From Verrucomicrobiales bacterium (lineage in GTDB: Bacteria; Verrucomicrobiota; Verrucomicrobiia; Verrucomicrobiales; DEV007): a DNA stretch of 41,012 bases. Shown here piece by piece: positions 15,272-25,358 of this stretch. Made by a program: the position numbers and the translations under genes. Each line of letters starts with the position of its first letter. The stretch's first letter is position 1. The stretch is taken from NCBI GenBank assembly GCA_022361255.1, contig JAKSBG010000451.1:1-41012 (forward strand), read 5' to 3'. The notes beneath the pieces are model-generated. The model was given only the letters and a program-made list of their open reading frames with translations, searched no databases and had not been told where the DNA came from.

Positions 15272-17335
15272 TCAGGGACTGGAGAAACCGGTAGAGCCAA
15301 AAGGCACAAAGGGGAGGATGGTAGGATCGAGGATGAATGTCGCTCCACCCGACAGCGTGTTGGTGTTGAGAGTGTCTTCGAGCAGGAATGACGATGCGAG
15401 CTGTTCGCGGAAAAGAGCGTCGTTCCCGAGCGTGTTCCCGAAAAACTGGAGCTGGAATTGAGAAGTGTCGTCCGAATCAATTTCAATGATGTCCCCTCCA
15501 CTGTCTCCGAAAAGTTCGTTGTGAGCGACTTGATACAATCCTACCGAATTGTCAGTTACATCAATATCGAGCGGGTCATCATCGGTGTTTCTGAAGACAT
15601 TTCTGAGGATTCGGAGTCGGGCGAAGGAATTGTCATCCTGATCAATCTCGAGGCCTTCCCCGAACTCTGTTCCATTCACCCGGTTGTCTGAGATCTTTCC
15701 CCGAATACTGGAGTTGTCTTCCAATTCGATTTGGATGCCATCGTCTCCGGGCCGGTTCAAAATGTTGTCTGTGATGCGAACGCGAACATCGGCAGTTCCG
15801 GTCAGGTCGAAATCGATTCCATCGTCGAGTGAACTGCGAATCCGGTTGCCCTGAATGACGACATTCATTTTCCTGCCCCCGTCGCTTTCGATATCGATGG
15901 CGTCCTGGGATGCATTGATGATACGGTTTCCGATCAGAGAAACGTCAGCGACATTCGCAGCGAAAATTGCGTCGGGATTCACGAAGCTGGCAGCTCCATT
16001 GATGACGCGAAAGTTTTCCATGGAGAAGGTATCCACATCGATAACGGCGATTCCACCATCTATGGTCGGCCGGTTGCCATAGTGAAATATTCCTCCGCCG
16101 GCTACCGGAATTCTTCCACCAAACAGTCGAACGCTTTTTCCGGCATCGACAATATCTTCGCGGTAGACCCGTTTCGAGCCTGCCACAACAATGTTTCCAT
16201 TATTCCCGAATTTCGCTGCGGAGCGGTTTACGCCGCGCTGAATCGTATTGGCTGGATTTTCAAGCGTTCCCCGGCCGCGGCCGCGCGGGCCAGGAACACT
16301 CCCGGCTCCGCCGTTGTTTACGAAAATCACATCATCGAGGAGAAGGTTGAGTTTTTGTTCAGTCAGGAAGGGATCAGATATTTCTGTAAGCACCCACTCC
16401 CTCCGGTCAACGGCGGCGGAGAGGAAATGGCGCATGTTTTCCCTTTCATCATTTTCTGATTTCGGACGAAAGGCGTTGGCGATTCCGTCAACCCAGCTGC
16501 CGGGATGAAAGAGGTTACTGAACTCGAACGGGGCGGAAACACCGGCCACAAAAACCCAGTGGTCGCCATAGAAGTCCTCATCGCCGTAATATTCGGCCCC
16601 GAACGTGGCTCCTTCAAAAGGTTGAATGGTAAGTCCGGCCTGAATGCCGCTCAGATCTTCGCGCGAGTGTCCGGAAAATTGGTAGGCTCCGACATGACCT
16701 CGCGCCGGCAGAATTTCATTCAGGACGGGAAGGTCGAATGCGAGTTTCACATCCGCTCCGCGGCGTCCGCGCTCGTAGATAGAGAACAGGCTTTCCGTTT
16801 GAAGTATGGAGTGGCCTCTTCCGAAGGCGGGACCAAATGTGGAGAATTCTCCTGCAAGATGTGGACCTGTCTCAGGCAGGTAGAGGTTGGCGTGAATGTC
16901 AAAACCGGTATGGGTGAAGAGATCCAGACCAAAACCAAGCTGGGCAATCTGATGATCCAGTTCAGTTTCTGTGACATCGCCATGAATGTGAAACCCGAGG
17001 ACAGAGTCCATCTCCGGCAGATATTTTCTGAGTCCCAATCCTCCACTGAACGACTGACTCCCTTCATCCCGAAAATTGAGATTTACCTTCGCAAAGACAA
17101 GGGAGCCCGGACTTGTTACCAGGGGGATGAAGGAACGAAAGTCCTGCTGAATCCTTTCGTTACTGATTCGCGAAAGGGATGTGAAGTCAATTCTGCGGAC
17201 GGATTGATCCGGGGCACTCACTGATGACATCGGGTCATCGTCATCGAGTGTCAGCGGTGCCGCGACAACGAACGGACCGGCAGTGGCAAAAAGAACAGGG
17301 AGCGCCAACCTGTAGCAGGTGCGGATCAGGTGCAT
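15272..17335 (-). CDS. inverse-autotransporter-like barrel with beta-helix passenger
   Basis: Predicted outer-membrane protein of 687 residues. A signal peptide (MHLIRTCYRLALPVLFATAG...) is followed at about 60-300 by a beta-barrel resembling the inverse autotransporter (intimin/invasin, type Ve) domain: GGLGLRKYLPEMDSVLGFHI, then FGLDLFTHTGFDIHANLYLP, then ARGHVGAYQFSG and GAEYYGDEDFYGDHW. The C-terminal 300 residues are a right-handed parallel beta-helix, with repeated N-R-I/D-G-I turns (IGNRIINASQDAIDIES, ITDNILNRPGDDGIQIE, ISDNRVNGTEFGEGLEID). The passenger being C-terminal fits type Ve topology. I chose the ATG at 17335 for its signal peptide rather than an in-frame TTG at 17377. A cluster of TTACAG repeats lies upstream. 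Confidence 0.78.
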   Translation of the reverse strand: MHLIRTCYRLALPVLFATAGPFVVAAPLTLDDDDPMSSVSAPDQSVRRIDFTSLSRISNERIQQDFRSFIPLVTSPGSLVFAKVNLNFRDEGSQSFSGGLGLRKYLPEMDSVLGFHIHGDVTETELDHQIAQLGFGLDLFTHTGFDIHANLYLPETGPHLAGEFSTFGPAFGRGHSILQTESLFSIYERGRRGADVKLAFDLPVLNEILPARGHVGAYQFSGHSREDLSGIQAGLTIQPFEGATFGAEYYGDEDFYGDHWVFVAGVSAPFEFSNLFHPGSWVDGIANAFRPKSENDERENMRHFLSAAVDRREWVLTEISDPFLTEQKLNLLLDDVIFVNNGGAGSVPGPRGRGRGTLENPANTIQRGVNRSAAKFGNNGNIVVAGSKRVYREDIVDAGKSVRLFGGRIPVAGGGIFHYGNRPTIDGGIAVIDVDTFSMENFRVINGAASFVNPDAIFAANVADVSLIGNRIINASQDAIDIESDGGRKMNVVIQGNRIRSSLDDGIDFDLTGTADVRVRITDNILNRPGDDGIQIELEDNSSIRGKISDNRVNGTEFGEGLEIDQDDNSFARLRILRNVFRNTDDDPLDIDVTDNSVGLYQVAHNELFGDSGGDIIEIDSDDTSQFQLQFFGNTLGNDALFREQLASSFLLEDTLNTNTLSGGATFILDPTILPFVPFGSTGFSSP

Positions 17336-17385
17336 GGGTAGCACACTATGTGATCGCGGTACCTGCGCAATCGGCAAATGTGAAC

Positions 17386-17426: not shown

Positions 17427-19460
17427 TCACCCGACCCGTTGACCGGGAACAGCTCCTTCGTCAGGAGAAAGAATAAAGATATCTTCGCCTCCCGGGCCGG
17501 CGGCAACAATCATGCCCTCGGAGACTCCAAATTTCATTTTTCGCGGAGCGAGGTTGGCGACCATGACGACGAGGCGTCCGGTGAGCTCTTCGAGTTCGTA
17601 GGCGGATTTGATTCCGGCAAATACGTTGCGGGTCTCGTCTCCACCGAGACTCAGAGTCAGTTGGACGAGCTTTCGCGCTTCGGGGACTTCCTTTGCTTCG
17701 ATGATTCGTGCGACGCGAAGATCGGTTTTGAAAAAGTCATCGATCGTGATTTCATCGGCGATGGGGTCAGCAGCGAGCGCATCGCCGGAGTCGTTCCATT
17801 CGCCGGAAGGCACGGGCGCAGCTGCCGCTGCGAGTTCTTTTGATTCTTCGATCATGGCTTCGATTTTCTTCGGGTCGACCCGTTGCATCATGTGCTTGAA
17901 CTTGTTGATCTCGCGACCGGTGACCGGGGCTTTTGACTGCTCCCACGAGGTAAGTTCTTCGCCGAAAAGTTCTCCTGCTTTCTGCGCGAGTCCGGGAAGA
18001 ACGGGTGCGAGATAAATGGTGAGAGTGCGAAAGAGGTTCAAAGCGACGGTGCAGACGTCCTGAAGTTCCTGTGCTTTGGTTTCGTCTTTGCGCAATTCCC
18101 ACGGAGCGTTGTTTTCTACGAAGGGGTTTGCCTGATCGGCGAGCTCCATAATCATACGAGTCGCTTTCCCGAAATCACCGGCTTCATAGGCTGCTGCAAT
18201 TTCGTCACCGCGAGCGGCAAAGGTATCAAAGAGCCCTCCGTCTTCGGGATAGGTTTCGGAGAGTCCGACGCCCTGGATGAATTTTGCGGTACGGCTGGCG
18301 AGATTCACGACCTTGCCGACGAGATCGCTGTTGATCTTGCTCACGAATTCCTCCGGATTGAGATCGAGGTCTTCCACCCGGGACGAAAGTCGCGTCGCGT
18401 AGTAGTAGCGGAGGTAGGACGGGTCGAGGTGCTTGAGGTAAGTGGCCGCCTCGATGAAGGTGCCGCGGCTCTTCGACATCTTTTCCCCGTCGACAGTGAG
18501 AAAGCCGTGGATGTGGACTTTGTCCGGGAGAGAGAACCCGGCCGTTTTCAGCATCGCGGGCCAGAAAAGGGTGTGGAAATACTGAATGTCTTTGCCGATG
18601 AAATGGTGGATCTCGGTGGAATCGCTCTTCCACCAGTCCTCGAGTTTTTCGCCGTTGGCGCTGCACCACTGTTGCGTTGTTCCGATGTACCCGATCGGCG
18701 CATCGAACCAGACATACCAGTAGTTCCCGGGGGAATCCGGAATTTCGAATCCGAAGTAGGGACCGGGACGGGAGATGTCCCAGTCGCGCAAGGGTTCATT
18801 GAGAAAGAAATTCTTCAGGTAGTTGGCGCTTTCGGAGGGGAGGGTGCCGGACTGAGTCCACTCATCGAGGAATCCGTGAAGTTTTTCGATTTGAACAAAG
18901 AGGTGCTTTGCCGATCGAATTTCCGGTTGGGTCCCGGACAGTGTGCTGACGGGATCAACAAGTTCAGCCGGGGTGTAGGTCGTTCCACATGAGCCGCAGT
19001 TGTCGCCCGGCTGATCTTTTGAGCCGCAGTTCGGGCAGGTCCCGCGGACGAAGCGGTCGGCGAGAAATACGCCTTTTTCGGTATCGTAGAGTTGGTCGAT
19101 TTCCTCCTCGACTACCATGTCGGCATCGCGAAGAGACTGCCAGATTTCGTGACAGACGACGCGGTTTTCCTCGCTGTTGGTGGAACCGTAATGATCGAAC
19201 TCGATGTGAAACCCGGAGAAGTCGCGCTGATGTTCCTCACTGACCTGGGCTATCAGTTCCTCTTCGGTTCGGTTTTCCGCGTTGGCGCGGATCGTGATGG
19301 CGGTCCCGTGCGTATCGTCGGCGCAAATGTAAATGCAGCGGTTGCCCATCATTTTCTGAAACCGCACCCAGATGTCGGTTTGCAGATATTCCACGAGATG
19401 TCCGATGTGAATCGGACCATTTGCGTAGGGGAGAGCTGACGTGACGAGGATTTGCCGCAT
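17427..19460 (-). CDS. metG: methionine-tRNA ligase
   Basis: Cytoplasmic class I aminoacyl-tRNA synthetase of 677 residues that charges tRNA-Met. The HIGH motif is at 18-21 ([10 protein letters not shown]), the zinc knuckle is [19 protein letters not shown], and KMSKS is at 327-331. The anticodon-binding helical region follows, and the last ~100 residues are the C-terminal tRNA-binding/dimerisation OB domain ([20 protein letters not shown]). Two zinc-type CxxC pairs place it with the E. coli-like class. The start at 19460 fits the family N-terminus [15 protein letters not shown]. It follows the YnbE-YdbL-like gene by 82 bases and may share its transcript. Confidence 0.97.
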
Positions 19461-19542
19461 GGGGGAGTGTAGAGGGCAAGTTTTCAGTTTCAAGAACTAC
19501 CTCGGGCAGGATTCCTGAAATGAATTTCGCCAACACCTGTGT

Positions 19543-20058
19543 TTACTCGCCCGCTTTCTTTTTCTGCTCCCACTTGTAGCCACCGGTCTCGTTTTCCACC
19601 TCGATCCATTCACCGGGAAAGGATTTTCTCTGCCAATGTTTCCATTGTTCCGCGCGGATCTGATCGAGAGTGACGTTTTTCTCCCCGGCCTCTTTTTTCA
19701 TGAGAGTAACCCGGTCGCGATTCTCGTCGGAAACGGTTTTGACGACATAGTCGCCGTATTCACCGGCAGGCTTGGTCCGAACCGATAACTCGCCCAGGTG
19801 ATTTTCCCCGACAAGGCGGTTGTTCTTCAGTTCCTGTACTTCCTCCATCCGGGTTCGACGAGAATCCATCGCGGAGCGGAAAGTTTCCTGCTCTTCGGAG
19901 GTTTTCTTGTCGACCTTCCCGTGTTGATAGACATGGACATCCATGTCGAGATCGACCTTGATCGGTTCGGGAGTGGCAACGTTTACGTCGAAAGGTTTGC
20001 ACGACGCAAGCAGCGTGAGCATTGTCAGAAATGGTAAAAACTGTCGCGAAATCGACAT
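19543..20058 (-). CDS. lipoprotein resembling a YnbE-YdbL fusion
   Basis: Predicted outer-membrane lipoprotein of 171 residues. The signal peptide ends in the lipobox LLASC (Cys20). Residues 21-50 (FDVNVATPEPIKVDLDMDVH) match the short YnbE lipoprotein pattern of a Cys-linked strand with V-A-x-P-x-x-P-I. Residues of about 78-168 match YdbL (DUF1318): LKNNRLVGENHLGELSVR, DENRDRVTLMKKEAGEKNVT, and PGEWIEVENETGGYKWEQK near the end. In E. coli these are separate proteins acting with YdbH in lipid transport between membranes. Here the gene begins 3 bases after the YdbH-like stop, so coupled expression is expected. The fusion interpretation is my reading of the motifs. Confidence 0.75.
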   Translation of the reverse strand: MSISRQFLPFLTMLTLLASCKPFDVNVATPEPIKVDLDMDVHVYQHGKVDKKTSEEQETFRSAMDSRRTRMEEVQELKNNRLVGENHLGELSVRTKPAGEYGDYVVKTVSDENRDRVTLMKKEAGEKNVTLDQIRAEQWKHWQRKSFPGEWIEVENETGGYKWEQKKKAGE

Positions 20059-20061
20059 GGG

Positions 20062-23000
20062 TTACTGCCCGCGCGAGGCAACGGGGCGTGCGCTGGCTTC
20101 TGGAGTCAGTTGATTGTCTGCCCGGGGAGGATCTGCAGCTGCATTACCTTCGGGTTGTGTTTCTGTTTCGTTAGCGGGGCCGGCCGCCGCCACCGTCGTG
20201 TCGGGCGCCCGGTCATCGTGAAGGTGAAAGGTCAGTTCGCGAGACCCATAGGGGCCGGTGAAGCGAAGATCGAGTTCTCCATCACGTCCGAGAAGGTAGA
20301 GGCTACCGGAGCCTTTGTCATAATCAAATCGTTTCACTGCGATGAGACCCAGCTCGGCGAGGCTCTTTTTCAGATTTGTCCAGTCCGCGGGAAGTTTGTC
20401 GAGAATGGCGTCGAATTTCTTGATATCGAACCACCCCGGGGCACTGGTCTGAAACTCCCCGGTGGTTTCCCCGAGCGCCTTTTTCCTGCCCCCTGAGACG
20501 ATTTTCAAAGAGATCGGCCCGTCCATCTGGAAGTTTTCGGGAGCGAGTGCGTTGGTGATCGGCATTGCCTCCATGTTGGTGCCGGCAACCCATGCGTCCC
20601 ATTTCCCGTCTTCATTCAGGTAGAAGTTAAATCCGCCCTCGGCATAGCCACCGTAGGCATCTCCCCCGAGCGCACCGTAGATTCCGTTTTCGTCAAAGGT
20701 GACAGTAAGGAAAAGGTTTTCCGCTTCGTATTTTTTCCAGACCAGTTTATCGAGAGCGAATGTCTGTACGAGGTTGTTGTTCACTTCCTCGACGGGAACG
20801 TTGAACTCGACGTCTCCGGTCAGTCCGTAGAGATCAACCTTGTAGTCGGGAAAGCGGTAGACGTAATCCTCGTCGGGTATAGAAAGCTTCAGCTCGGTTT
20901 TCCCGTCTGCCATACTGGTTGTCGCATTGAAAGGAAAAGGAACCATGCCGATCGGGATTCCGGTCGGGGCGATGACGATTTTCCCCGCAGTTGCATTGAT
21001 TGTTTTCACGACCCAGTCCGGACTGGCGGTGGCTTCTTCGGGAAGGGAATCTTCCTCCAGTCCGATGCTGGCACCTTCATTCTGCTCCCGGAAATTTCGC
21101 TGGTAGTCGATCCACCAGAAAAGTCCCTGTCCGACGTGCAGCGACGGACCGATCAGGTCGATCTTCTCCACCTCCTGACTGGCGAGCCCGGCGAGGGAAA
21201 ATTCGACGAAAATGGTGGGGAGGGTCGCAACGGTGATGAATGAATCGTAGGGGTCTTTGATCTCGATACCGGCCAACTCGATCTTTTGCAGCTTGTCCTG
21301 GGCGAGCAGTTCGTCGGGAGAAAGAGGGACGTCCGTAAGTATGGTCTCGACGTCGAATTCCAGCCCCTCAACCTGGGGCACCAGCGCTTCGAAGAAAACA
21401 CGGCTTCTCGTAATTTGCACCTCTTCGAGACTCCAGGTCGGGAGTTCATTTGCTGCGAGCTGCCGGGGTTCGGTTGGTTCGGGCGCGGAAGTCTCATCAG
21501 CCTCACTCTCTGTCTTTCCGCTGTCGACAATCGCTTTGAGCCCTTCACCGATTTTCATTTCCGCGCCGTCGATAGTTACCGTGCCAATCCGGCGGGTTCG
21601 CTGCAACTGGTCTGCCGTGGCGGTCACCTGGATATTCTTAATGGAGAGAACTTCCTCCTCGGCGATAGGAGAGGGAGCTGCCGTTTCATCAGGTTGATCG
21701 GGAAAAAGGGTGGGGGAACGCGGAGCAGGTGGACCTTCAAACTCAATGGAGACGGCATGGTTTCTCAGTTCAAAATTTTCGAGGTCGATTTCATAGGTAA
21801 AGGGGGCGGCCTCTTCGGCATCGTTGGTCCGGATACTGAAGTCGGAGTAAATTTTGGGAACCCGCCCCGCAGCGAACTGGGAATCGGCTTCGAGCTGACC
21901 GCCCGTCACCTGAAGCTTTTGAACTTTGTAGACAGGGCGATTGATCGGTCCAACGACCTCTTCTTTTTCATCCGGATTGAGCCACGCGCCCAACGCTTCG
22001 TCTGTGAACGTGATTTTGGGATTATCCAGCGTCAGCGTTTCGATCGTGTTGTTGAACGTGAAATCAGACCAGCGCAGGACCAGTTCTCCGGATTCGAAAG
22101 ATACCAGCGGATCATTTCCCGCCTGCACTTCCGGGCTGCGAAGGGTGGTCGCACCGAGTGAAAGCTTCTGAAGCGCCTGAGAAGAAAAACCGTCTTCGCC
22201 TCCCACCCGCAGATCGAAAAATTCACCGGAAAGAGAGGTTTCCACGCGAGGGGCAGGCTGACCGCCAAAGGTGGCTCCCTGGAGCAGGAAGGTTCCATCT
22301 GTTATTTTCAGCGATTCGAGGATCCACGGAGCTGAATCGGATGCAGATGATGCAGTCGTTGTCGTTTCCGTCTCTTTTCGCAAACGCTCGATCGATTTGT
22401 CGGAAATCAGGACATCAATGCCGTCGATCGTCAGGCCGGATATCGTCCGGTCATGGATCAGCTTCCCGGGATTCTCCAGCATGACGGAGATTCGGTCGAT
22501 CGACGCCAACTGAGAAGTCGGTTCGCCGATTGCGATAGCGGAGAAATCGACCCGAAGAGGGGCCGGGCTTTTCCATCGCCCGTCGGAATAGCTGACATCG
22601 AGAAACTCGATTTCCGTTTCGAAAGACACATCAGGGAGAGAGGGGCTTCCCTCACTGCCATCAAAGCCGGTCAAAGAGAACTCTGACTGGCCGATACGGA
22701 TCTTTTCAAAGAACATCTCCGGAAAATCAGAAGCATTGTTCCTCTCTGGAGTGCTTTTGCCGGCGACGGGGGCATTCTCCTCCGGCTTGCTGAACCAGTT
22801 CGGAGTGACTTCTGCCGCGATGCCGGAAAGATCGAGAATCGGCACATCGATTCGTGAAAGATCACGATAGACGAGAATTTCGGCAGTAGCGGTATCGATG
22901 TTACCGGCTTTATCTTCTTCCCCGACTGAAATGTCAGTCAGTTCGACGGAAACGGAGTTATCCGGGGCGCCGGAATCCCCGTAGGTCAGCGGCCCGGTGT

Positions 23001-23574
23001 TTAAATTCCAGGTTGTGGAAATTTCCGGGATGCCGGGAAGTTGCAGCGTCATCTGCCCACCGCGTATTTCGAGTGATTCGGTGAAATAGGAAAAATCAGC
23101 GAGATCGACCGACGCGGAGGAATCTTCTGACCCCGGACTTGATTCCGGCATATTCCCGAGAAAGTGATCGGTCACGAGGATTTCCGGTTTCTCAATGACG
23201 ATCGTCTTTACTTCCCCGTTTTGTCTGAGGCGGTCAAAGTCATAGGTGAGGTGCAATTCCGGAATCCGGATCATGGAAACCTCGCTTGTCGTTCCTCTGG
23301 GGGAAAGGTGGAGATCCTCGACCTTGACCTTCCCGATATCCCTGACATGAATGGCCCCGACGGAAACTTCGAAAGGCTCAACGAAGCGGGCGAGTGCTTC
23401 GTTGACCACCCTCTCGCGATTCGCGTAAAGAATGACAGCGAGAATGGCGACCAGCACGACTGCTGCAAGGACGGCCAGAAATGACCATCCGAGAAAGCGA
23501 AGCAGCCATCGAAAGATGATCCGAGGCGTCCGGAGATACCATCGCTCCCCGGGAGAATGTGTGTGTTTCGGCAC
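20062..23574 (-). CDS. YdbH-like AsmA-type intermembrane lipid-transport protein
   Basis: Very long (1170 residues) inner-membrane-anchored periplasmic protein. One N-terminal helix (about 24-50, LGWSFLAVLAAVVLVAILAV) precedes a beta-rich repetitive body of AsmA-like/DUF3971-type blocks (repeated 'L-x-I-x-x-V/I-x-I' strands such as KTIVIEKPEILVTDHFL, KLQVTGGQLEADS). The last 300 residues resemble the YdbH domain, including VPVEEVNNNLVQTFAL and GELDLRFTGPYGSRELTF. In E. coli YdbH spans the periplasm with YnbE to move phospholipids. The GTG at 23574 is the likely start; no ATG precedes the helix. A serine protease gene lies 53 bases upstream and the YnbE-YdbL-like gene 3 bases downstream. Confidence 0.8.
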   Translation of the reverse strand: MPKHTHSPGERWYLRTPRIIFRWLLRFLGWSFLAVLAAVVLVAILAVILYANRERVVNEALARFVEPFEVSVGAIHVRDIGKVKVEDLHLSPRGTTSEVSMIRIPELHLTYDFDRLRQNGEVKTIVIEKPEILVTDHFLGNMPESSPGSEDSSASVDLADFSYFTESLEIRGGQMTLQLPGIPEISTTWNLNTGPLTYGDSGAPDNSVSVELTDISVGEEDKAGNIDTATAEILVYRDLSRIDVPILDLSGIAAEVTPNWFSKPEENAPVAGKSTPERNNASDFPEMFFEKIRIGQSEFSLTGFDGSEGSPSLPDVSFETEIEFLDVSYSDGRWKSPAPLRVDFSAIAIGEPTSQLASIDRISVMLENPGKLIHDRTISGLTIDGIDVLISDKSIERLRKETETTTTASSASDSAPWILESLKITDGTFLLQGATFGGQPAPRVETSLSGEFFDLRVGGEDGFSSQALQKLSLGATTLRSPEVQAGNDPLVSFESGELVLRWSDFTFNNTIETLTLDNPKITFTDEALGAWLNPDEKEEVVGPINRPVYKVQKLQVTGGQLEADSQFAAGRVPKIYSDFSIRTNDAEEAAPFTYEIDLENFELRNHAVSIEFEGPPAPRSPTLFPDQPDETAAPSPIAEEEVLSIKNIQVTATADQLQRTRRIGTVTIDGAEMKIGEGLKAIVDSGKTESEADETSAPEPTEPRQLAANELPTWSLEEVQITRSRVFFEALVPQVEGLEFDVETILTDVPLSPDELLAQDKLQKIELAGIEIKDPYDSFITVATLPTIFVEFSLAGLASQEVEKIDLIGPSLHVGQGLFWWIDYQRNFREQNEGASIGLEEDSLPEEATASPDWVVKTINATAGKIVIAPTGIPIGMVPFPFNATTSMADGKTELKLSIPDEDYVYRFPDYKVDLYGLTGDVEFNVPVEEVNNNLVQTFALDKLVWKKYEAENLFLTVTFDENGIYGALGGDAYGGYAEGGFNFYLNEDGKWDAWVAGTNMEAMPITNALAPENFQMDGPISLKIVSGGRKKALGETTGEFQTSAPGWFDIKKFDAILDKLPADWTNLKKSLAELGLIAVKRFDYDKGSGSLYLLGRDGELDLRFTGPYGSRELTFHLHDDRAPDTTVAAAGPANETETQPEGNAAADPPRADNQLTPEASARPVASRGQ

Positions 23575-23627: not shown

Positions 23628-24701
23628 TTAGCGCGAAATTGCCTGTTCCTGAGCTGCGATGAGCTGGAGGTTGGCGATTTCAACAGGGGTGAGCTGATCT
23701 TGAACCTGTTCTACGGATGCGGTTCTGGGGCGGTAGGCAGCTCCGTACTCACTGGCAAAGTGTTGCCCTTCCGGTGTCGTGAATTGAAAGCCGCGTCGCA
23801 GATAAATCTCGTTTCTGGCCCGCCAAAGCGCGTGGGGCTGCAGGGTTCTCACCTCGGAAGCGGAGAGCGCTCTCGCATGGGAATCCGGGAAAACCCAGGG
23901 AATTCTCCGTGGAGGTAGTGCCACCTGAGCGAAGGCCGGGGCAGTTGCCGCCGGTTGTCGCACCGGCATTGGTCTGACCTGTGTGGGAGCGTGATGCGGT
24001 ATCGGAACCATTGTTTCCCCTTTCGCCATGCTTTCAATCAGCACGATCGAGTTCAAAGTCCGTGCGATCTGTTTCTGGCGATCTTTTGTGCGGGTGGAAA
24101 ACCTGGGGATTTTCACATCGCAGTGTTCCAGGAGAGGGACAATGAGCTCCGTTTTCACGGCAAAATTCACTGACTGGGGCAGGTATCCCCCACGCTTCAT
24201 TCGATCGAGCGAGTTGAGGCCGGAGACCACGACCCCGACAACTCGTCCTGACTGGGCGATAACCGGCCCCCCTGAATTTCCGGGTTGGACAGGGGCAGAG
24301 AATTGCAGGAGGCGGGGGTCGTCGCGAACGCCGGATAAAGCGTTCACCGTACCGGTGGAGATCTTCGGGTTTTTCCCAAGAATCTTGGGGTCGGGAAAAC
24401 CGGCGGCGATGATGTTGGATGTCAGGTGCACTTCGGAGATGTTGCCCAGACCCAGATGGCGTCCGCTCCATTCATTGATTTTCAAAACAGCTAAATCGTT
24501 TGCAGGATCGAGAGCAACGATAATGGCAGGCATATGTCCTCCCGGAGTGTGAACAATCACGCGCTCCGCGTCCCTTACTACATGAAAGCATGTAATAATG
24601 AATCCCTTCGGACTGACGGCGAAGCCGGTTCCGAACTGTCCTGCTTTCAGGCTCGCGCAGAAGAGCGTGCCGACAGCAAGAATGGCTGCAAAGAGCTTCA
24701 T
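23628..24701 (-). CDS. secreted trypsin-like serine protease (S1C/DegP-type core)
   Basis: Exported protease of 357 residues with signal peptide MKLFAAILAVGTLFCASLKA. The S1C catalytic triad is His40 (TCFHVV), Asp69 (NDLAVL) and Ser143 (QPGNSGGPV). The oxyanion and specificity loops look intact. The C-terminal ~130 residues lack a recognisable PDZ domain and are instead Pro/Ala-rich (HHAPTQVRPMPVRQPAATAP) followed by a short helical tail, so this is not a canonical DegP. It probably acts in the periplasm in protein quality control or processing. It is the first gene of a likely minus-strand unit with the YdbH-like gene, and an AT-rich promoter-like region (24840-24900) precedes it. Confidence 0.85.
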   Translation of the reverse strand: MKLFAAILAVGTLFCASLKAGQFGTGFAVSPKGFIITCFHVVRDAERVIVHTPGGHMPAIIVALDPANDLAVLKINEWSGRHLGLGNISEVHLTSNIIAAGFPDPKILGKNPKISTGTVNALSGVRDDPRLLQFSAPVQPGNSGGPVIAQSGRVVGVVVSGLNSLDRMKRGGYLPQSVNFAVKTELIVPLLEHCDVKIPRFSTRTKDRQKQIARTLNSIVLIESMAKGETMVPIPHHAPTQVRPMPVRQPAATAPAFAQVALPPRRIPWVFPDSHARALSASEVRTLQPHALWRARNEIYLRRGFQFTTPEGQHFASEYGAAYRPRTASVEQVQDQLTPVEIANLQLIAAQEQAISR

Positions 24702-25056: not shown

Positions 25057-25133
25057 CGGGACGTGGCGCAGTTTGGTAGCGCACCACAATGGGGTTGTGG
25101 GGGTCGCTGGTTCGAATCCAGTCGTCCCGACCA
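25057..25133 (+). tRNA. tRNA-Pro (anticodon GGG)
   Basis: A 77-base tRNA. The acceptor stem is CGGGACG/CGTCCCG with discriminator A and an encoded CCA (25131-25133). The D-arm GCGCAGTTTGGTAGCGC is that of bacterial tRNA-Pro. The anticodon stem CCACA/TGTGG encloses ATGGGGT, giving GGG. The T-arm has the loop TTCGAAT. A perfect 59-bp repeat of its 3' end and flank lies 174 bases downstream. Confidence 0.96.
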
Positions 25134-25184
25134 TTTTTGCGAAGCAAAAGAAGAGGAGGGGCGAGTGGGTTCGAACCAGCGAAG
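25126..25184 (+). repeat. 59-bp direct repeat, copy 1 (tRNA-Pro 3' end and flank)
   Basis: These 59 bases are identical to 25300-25358. The copy begins inside the tRNA-Pro acceptor strand (CCCGACCA) and continues through TTTTTGCGAAGCAAAAG, which is a small hairpin (TTTTGC GAA GCAAAA), and on to GGGTTCGAACC, a T-loop-like palindrome. Confidence 0.95.
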
Positions 25185-25299: not shown

Positions 25300-25358
25300 C
25301 CCGACCATTTTTGCGAAGCAAAAGAAGAGGAGGGGCGAGTGGGTTCGAACCAGCGAAG
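25300..25358 (+). repeat. 59-bp direct repeat, copy 2
   Basis: It is a perfect match to copy 1, with 174 bases between start points. Just upstream, AATCCAGTCGTCC (25275-25288) also repeats tRNA-Pro sequence but is separated from this copy by 11-12 extra bases (GGGGGCGCCTCG). A partial tRNA duplication is the simplest reading. It ends 13 bases before the SDR stop codon. Confidence 0.93.

What the first reader, a model, noticed from the sequence alone, without database searches (positions are those of the whole stretch)
19543..23574. Two-gene YdbH system with YnbE and YdbL fused into one lipoprotein
Escherichia coli ydbH, ynbE and ydbL are three genes acting in phospholipid transport across the periplasm. 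Here a 1170-residue YdbH-like protein is followed 3 bases later by a lipoprotein whose N-terminus reads like YnbE and whose C-terminus reads like YdbL. The fusion would tie the modulator to the bridge partner in fixed 1:1 ratio. I know of no description of such a fusion, though I cannot search.
Basis: partly seen in the sequence, partly recalled or inferred. Interest (0 to 1): 0.7.

Follow-up and report, generated by a model that had tools for sequence, protein, structure and literature searches.

The report
YdbH bridge with fused YnbE-YdbL lipoprotein
In Verrucomicrobiota two partners of a predicted lipid bridge between the cell's two membranes, a strand that docks on the bridge and the chaperone thought to stop that strand from clumping, are built as one lipid-anchored protein, so the chaperone would travel with its client.

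Summary
On the minus strand a 1170-aa AsmA-like protein (20062-23574) is followed 3 bases later by a 171-aa lipoprotein (19543-20058) that joins a YnbE-type segment to a YdbL (DUF1318) domain. The YdbL half is certain: Pfam E=3e-8, and its AlphaFold model overlays the E. coli YdbL crystal structure 28oj (Z 12.9, 1.4 A over 87/87 residues). The YnbE half is strongly supported: a lipobox Cys in 50/50 sequences, a strand with near-perfect hydrophobic/polar alternation, a profile match to YnbE (P=1e-5), and relatives in the same phylum that keep canonical ydbH-ynbE-ydbL genes. The large protein misses the Pfam YdbH model, but its C-terminus (the reported YnbE docking end) matches the YdbH family and no other E. 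coli AsmA-like protein. The fusion is not peculiar to this genome: 64 named loci, and 27 of about 66 DUF1318 genomes examined in the phylum, while 38 have split genes. Likely mechanism: an inter-membrane phospholipid bridge whose outer-membrane end carries its anti-aggregation chaperone in cis. Docking and chaperoning are inferred from E. coli; the one AlphaFold test of docking was inconclusive. New variant of a known kind.

The parts
20062..23574 (-). YdbH-type AsmA-like protein, 1170 aa, one N-terminal transmembrane helix, beta-groove body
   Evidence: ORF; 36 orthologues aligned; C-terminal profile match to Proteobacterial YdbH; no Pfam PF11739 hit
23425..23487 (-). predicted inner-membrane helix of the YdbH-like protein (residues about 30-50)
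   Evidence: sequence, hydrophobic run WSFLAVLAAVVLVAILAVILY
20200..20595 (-). C-terminal domain of the YdbH-like protein (residues 994-1125), collinear with E. coli YdbH 713-842, the end reported to dock YnbE
   Evidence: hhalign E=2.4e-5, or 3.4e-6 with the C-terminal region alone; other E. coli AsmA-like proteins 0.059 or worse
20059..20061 (-). 3-base spacer; relatives have -4 overlaps or short gaps
   Evidence: sequence; gap table of 59 loci
19543..20058 (-). YnbE-YdbL fusion lipoprotein, 171 aa
20002..20058 (-). lipoprotein signal peptide (residues 1-19), lipobox LAS-C
   Evidence: sequence; Cys20 invariant in 50 of 50; lipobox and +2/+3 residue tally
19921..20001 (-). YnbE-type segment (residues 20-46) with alternating amphipathic strand PIKVDLDMDVHV
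   Evidence: hhalign to YnbE P=1e-5; alternation at residues 33-43 in 50 sequences
19852..19920 (-). linker and start of the first long helix (residues 47-69); tether length 18-49 residues across relatives, usually 24
19558..19851 (-). YdbL/DUF1318 domain (residues 70-167)
   Evidence: Pfam; hhalign P=2.5e-10; VIA-align Z 12.9 to PDB 28oj
23628..24701 (-). neighbour: exported trypsin-like protease with YARHG domain, conserved upstream in close relatives only
   Evidence: Pfam; synteny in about 15 loci
17427..19493 (-). neighbour: methionyl-tRNA synthetase, conserved downstream in close relatives only
   Evidence: Pfam; 19 loci

Best explanation
The pair is a YdbH-type inter-membrane phospholipid bridge with a composite outer-membrane partner. 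The 1170-aa protein is held in the inner membrane by one N-terminal helix and crosses the periplasm as a beta-groove. The 171-aa lipoprotein is anchored by its lipidated Cys20, most likely in the outer membrane. Its amphipathic strand (residues 33-43) adds to the open C-terminal edge of the groove and so connects bridge and outer membrane. Its C-terminal YdbL domain, tethered by about 24 residues, keeps the free strand from stacking onto other copies until it docks; in E. coli this is the work of a separate, soluble YdbL. Fusion makes the chaperone available at 1:1 and at the membrane. Shown here: architecture, conservation, YdbL fold, YnbE-type strand, split-gene relatives, close gene spacing. 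Inferred from E. coli: docking, chaperoning, lipid cargo, outer-membrane destination.
For: YdbL half: Pfam DUF1318, hhalign P=2.5e-10, 28oj overlay at Z 12.9 and rmsd 1.4 A over all 87 residues, next best Z 4.6. YnbE half: profile match beyond 300 shuffles, Cys20 in 50/50, hydrophobic at residues 33, 35, 37, 39 and 41 in every sequence and 43 in 98%, polar at the even positions in at least 92%. Canonical order YdbH-like, separate YnbE lipoprotein, separate secreted YdbL in 38 genomes of the phylum. The YdbH-like C-terminus matches the YdbH family and not TamB, YhdP, AsmA or YicH. The two genes abut or overlap (-60 to +40 bases) in 51 of 59 loci, 13 of them with a -4 overlap; ydbH/ynbE of E. 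coli are translationally coupled (PMC6728339). The only DUF1318 in this genome is the fused one. YdbH C-terminus with YnbE by strand augmentation: PMC12045153; YnbE working with YdbH: PMC11784454. PDB names YdbL 'Probable chaperone-like protein'.
Against: Pfam YdbH (PF11739) and YnbE (PF13617) models find nothing here. The N-terminal half of the large protein matches AsmA and YicH better than YdbH. AlphaFold of the YdbH C-terminus joined to the fusion left the YnbE strand undocked at pLDDT 32-43, although most rows were unpaired and the signal peptide was left in as linker. No protein of this pair has been tested in any verrucomicrobium. The genome also has TamB, so the bridge need not be essential.
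Confidence: 0.66

Rival explanations
1. The fusion is only a way of making both partners together: after export a periplasmic protease, perhaps the conserved upstream trypsin-YARHG enzyme, cuts the linker and frees a YnbE-like lipopeptide and a soluble YdbL, as in E. coli.
For: A secreted trypsin-like protease is encoded just upstream in about 15 close relatives; the linker is variable in length and composition in some relatives (18-49 residues).
Against: The protease is not next to the fusion in more distant lineages that keep the fusion; the linker runs into a confident continuous helix, residues 51-79, and is a constant 24-25 residues in most sequences.
Confidence: 0.1
2. The N-terminal segment is merely a lipid anchor and spacer; the YdbL domain acts on the YdbH-like protein or other envelope proteins, and no strand is added to the groove.
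For: The segment is short, is extended in the model, and fails Pfam PF13617.
Against: Near-perfect alternation over 11 residues in 50 diverged sequences is not expected of a mere spacer; split relatives encode the segment as a free-standing lipoprotein.
Confidence: 0.13
3. The large protein is another kind of AsmA-like protein (YicH/AsmA/DUF748-like) and the pair serves something other than phospholipid supply, for instance outer-membrane protein or lipoprotein assembly.
For: 8 of 36 orthologues hit DUF748, best 6.8e-12, and none hits PF11739; the N-terminal region matches YicH (E=5.8e-5) and AsmA.
Against: The C-terminal domain matches only the YdbH family, and adjacency to both YnbE and YdbL is a YdbH trait.
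Confidence: 0.1
4. Artefact: two genes joined by sequencing or assembly error, or a chance resemblance.
For: The genome is a fragmented assembly (548 contigs).
Against: Unbroken in 50 aligned orthologues from many independent assemblies.
Confidence: 0.01

Closest known systems
E. coli YdbH-YnbE-YdbL system (ydbH b1381, ynbE b1382, ydbL b1383)
   Same: Same gene order; inner-membrane AsmA-like protein abutting or overlapping a lipoprotein with the same alternating strand motif (PITINMNVKIE against PIKVDLDMDVHV), followed by a YdbL fold.
   Different: YnbE and YdbL are one polypeptide; YdbL has lost its own signal peptide and is membrane-tethered; the YdbH-like protein is about a third longer (1170 against 879 aa) and outside the Pfam YdbH model.
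Split ydbH-ynbE-ydbL loci of other Verrucomicrobiota (for example L167-L178, L192)
   Same: Same phylum and gene order; YnbE and YdbL are recognisable relatives of the two halves.
   Different: Two separate genes; free-standing YnbE ends in a conserved LDDFFGDLD-like tail that the window's fusion lacks.
E. coli YdbL crystal structure, PDB 28oj
   Same: Residues 72-167 of the fusion overlay all 87 residues, Z 12.9, 1.4 A.
   Different: Soluble stand-alone protein.
TamA/TamB and TamL/TamB bridges
   Same: AsmA-like inner-membrane protein joined by strand augmentation to an outer-membrane partner; TamL is likewise a lipoprotein variant of a known partner (PMC12045153).
   Different: The outer-membrane partner there is a beta-barrel.

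Membership tests
YdbL / DUF1318 (PF07027) | Curated Pfam score | tested here: met
   34.5 bits against cut-off 27; all 23 relatives match
YdbL / DUF1318 (PF07027) | Fold of E. coli YdbL | tested here: met
   28oj, Z 12.9, rmsd 1.4 A, 87/87 residues
YdbL / DUF1318 (PF07027) | Stand-alone soluble periplasmic protein with its own signal peptide | tested here: not met
   C-terminal part of a lipoprotein; no second DUF1318 in the genome. So: a YdbL domain, not a YdbL protein
YnbE (PF13617) | Curated Pfam score | tested here: not met
   No hit in the fusion; a free-standing verrucomicrobial YnbE also fails (protein 2)
YnbE (PF13617) | Lipobox followed by P-I and an alternating amphipathic strand | tested here: met
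YnbE (PF13617) | Encoded directly after ydbH and before ydbL | tested here: met
YnbE (PF13617) | Binds the YdbH C-terminus by strand augmentation | tested here: inconclusive
   Joined-chain AlphaFold left the strand undocked with low confidence
YdbH (PF11739) | Curated Pfam score | tested here: not met
   No hit in genome, protein or 36 orthologues; hence called YdbH-type, not filed as a PF11739 member
YdbH (PF11739) | YdbH-specific C-terminal domain | tested here: met
   120 columns against the family profile, E=3.4e-6; TamB, YhdP, AsmA and YicH at 0.059 or worse, single sequences as controls; single E. coli YdbH 0.025 at the same place
YdbH (PF11739) | N-terminal membrane helix and beta-groove body | tested here: met
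   Sequence; beta-rich model of the C-terminal part, mostly pLDDT over 90 from model residue 250 to 420
YdbH (PF11739) | Phospholipid transport in cells | not testable with these tools
   needs genetics

The most novel reading that the evidence does not exclude
A natural client-chaperone fusion: the strand that completes a lipid-transfer bridge carries its own anti-amyloid domain in cis and at the outer membrane, so the bridge takes exactly one YnbE strand instead of a run of stacked YnbE copies, and the longer YdbH-type protein makes up the missing length.
Probability: 0.35. Interest if true: 0.7.

Novelty: new variant of a known kind. Interest (0 to 1): 0.55.

Why it matters
How bulk phospholipid reaches the outer membrane is a young and open field, and what YdbL does is its least settled part. 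A fusion kept across a large part of a phylum, beside relatives with split genes, is good comparative evidence that YdbL acts on YnbE directly and that the two can stay joined while working. It gives ready material for tests: one chain in which linker, strand and chaperone domain can be cut or separated. It also extends the YdbH bridge to Verrucomicrobiota, where the curated YdbH and YnbE models found nothing in this genome, so surveys built on them may have missed it.

Tried and rejected
Pfam and NCBIfam searches for the large protein and the YnbE part: empty, so replaced by profile-profile comparison with controls. Joined-chain AlphaFold of the YdbH C-terminus and the fusion (TAA stop read as Q under NCBI table 6; the two frames are in phase) gave a good groove and a good YdbL domain but no docking: inconclusive. 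Foldseek on that model found weak kinship only to Atg2 (prob 0.82) and TamAB for the groove, neither significant. Count of fusion events: the YdbL-domain tree needs 3-5 changes between fused and split, but an AU test does not reject a single fused clade (p 0.57), so repeated origin is not claimed, although coded families f26, f31 and f42 each contain both forms. Search for a stand-alone YnbE elsewhere in the genome found none, but the profile had no positive control. Fusion search in plasmids: none. A natural three-in-one protein was suspected in L027/L051 because the fusion's frame is open upstream; the YdbH frame there overlaps by 4 bases in another frame, so rejected. Phyla outside Verrucomicrobiota could not be surveyed; the one hit named Deltaproteobacteria (L112) groups inside Verrucomicrobiota and is probably a misbinned contig.
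Full report
CHECK OF THE OBSERVATION. On the minus strand the window holds an ORF of 1170 codons (20062-23574, GTG start, TAA stop), three bases, and an ORF of 171 codons (19543-20058, ATG start). The second begins with a signal peptide ending LAS-C (Cys20). Residues 70-156 match Pfam DUF1318, the YdbL family, above the curated cut-off (34.5 bits, E=3e-8). The curated YnbE and YdbH models do not ring.

THE FUSION IS REAL AND CONSERVED. A match is found in 36 of 57 related genomes, 57-80% identical in most members of the same coded genus, and in 64 named loci, all Verrucomicrobiota but one probably misbinned contig. In 50 aligned sequences Cys20 is invariant. All 23 members of the first alignment hit DUF1318.

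YdbL HALF. Profile-profile comparison with nine Proteobacterial YdbL sequences gives P=2.5e-10 over 85 columns, score 58.5 against at most 21.8 in 200 shuffles. AlphaFold of the fusion is confident (mean pLDDT 89.7). Foldseek's only significant PDB match is 28oj, E. coli YdbL; VIA-align overlays all 87 of its residues at 1.4 A, Z 12.9, the next chain having Z 4.6. The PDB sequence search names it 'Probable chaperone-like protein YdbL'.

YnbE HALF. The segment after Cys20 aligns with the YnbE core over 20 columns, P=1e-5, score 26.7 against at most 19.6 in 300 column shuffles. Residues 33, 35, 37, 39 and 41 are hydrophobic in 50 of 50 sequences and residue 43 in 98%, while 34, 36, 38, 40 and 42 are polar in 92-100%: a strand with one greasy face, in register with PITINMNVKIE of E. 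coli YnbE. The model leaves it extended at pLDDT near 75, as expected of a strand without its partner.

GENE-ORDER EVIDENCE. A phylum survey found 78 of 388 genomes with a match, falling into two kinds: matches over the whole fusion, and matches to the YdbL part alone. Reading about 66 of these loci showed, by my count, 27 genomes with a fusion and 38 with a separate small lipoprotein of YnbE type (for example C-LNVKTEPIEVKPIHITVDVNVRVERALDDFFGDLD) just before a YdbL with its own signal peptide, mostly after a large protein. That is the order of E. coli. The two halves of the fusion are thus separate genes elsewhere in the same phylum.

THE LARGE PROTEIN. It has one N-terminal hydrophobic helix. 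The profile of 36 orthologues aligns with Proteobacterial YdbH at the C-terminus, residues 994-1125 against 713-842 of E. coli YdbH, E=2.4e-5; with the C-terminal region alone E=3.4e-6. E. coli YhdP, TamB, AsmA and YicH give 0.059 or worse for that region, with the caveat that they were single sequences; single E. coli YdbH gives 0.025 at the same place. The N-terminal region matches YicH and AsmA instead, a general AsmA-like trait, and 8 of 36 orthologues hit DUF748. I call it YdbH-type and do not file it under PF11739, whose cut-off is not met.

MECHANISM. From the literature: YdbH is one of three redundant AsmA-like proteins essential for outer-membrane lipid homeostasis (PMC8593681), and its C-terminus is proposed to bind the outer-membrane lipoprotein YnbE by strand augmentation (PMC12045153; see also PMC11784454). 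That YdbL restrains runaway YnbE multimerization is from Kumar, Davis and Ruiz 2024 (PNAS, doi 10.1073/pnas.2321512121), which is not held here; I state it from memory. Applied to the fusion: Cys20 anchors, residues 33-43 extend the groove, the tether of about 24 residues carries the chaperone. Outer-membrane destination is inferred from the +2 residue (Lys here; Asp in 2 of 50) by the E. coli Lol rule, whose validity in Verrucomicrobiota is unproven. Translational coupling is likely: 51 of 59 pairs lie within -60 to +40 bases and 13 overlap by 4, and the E. coli ydbH/ynbE pair is strongly coupled (PMC6728339).

WHAT WAS NOT SHOWN. A joined-chain AlphaFold model gave a confident groove and YdbL domain but left the YnbE strand undocked at low confidence. 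Most alignment rows were unpaired, so this neither supports nor refutes. Phospholipid as cargo is untested. TamB is also encoded.

EVOLUTION. The YdbL-domain tree has a supported clade of 41 fused Verrucomicrobiota sequences (SH-aLRT 98) and a second of fused f26 sequences (95). Parsimony asks for 3-5 changes, but a single fused clade is not rejected (p 0.57). The outgroup and most families are split, so split is probably ancestral; this is inference.

NOVELTY. No paper found in the library mentions a YnbE-YdbL fusion, within the limit that subscription papers are absent. It is a new variant of a known bridge; the surprise is moderate, the experimental use good.

Noticed in passing
window 23628-24701 (-): Exported trypsin-like protease with a C-terminal YARHG domain directly upstream of the YdbH-type gene, kept there in about 15 close relatives; metG follows the fusion in 19.
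   Followed up: partly
window 15272-17377 (-): Protein with an inverse-autotransporter beta-domain match and a right-handed beta-helix region.
   Followed up: no
window 25126-25184 and 25300-25358: Exact 59-base direct repeat 174 bases apart, starting at the 3' end of a tRNA-Pro gene (25057-25133), as if the tRNA end had been duplicated by an insertion.
   Followed up: no
L130-L135 (coded family f8, Methylacidiphilales-like): Several of these genomes carry two fusion-type matches each, so two paralogous bridges may exist.
   Followed up: no
L146, L180 (G180): Three YdbL-only matches in one genome, two of them 3.5 kb apart, with no YnbE seen upstream.
   Followed up: no
L112: Contig filed as Deltaproteobacteria carries a fusion that groups inside Verrucomicrobiota; probably misbinned.
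   Followed up: partly
coded genus g4 of the same order (G036, G043 and others): This genus shows neither fused nor split matches, an apparent loss of the whole system.
   Followed up: no
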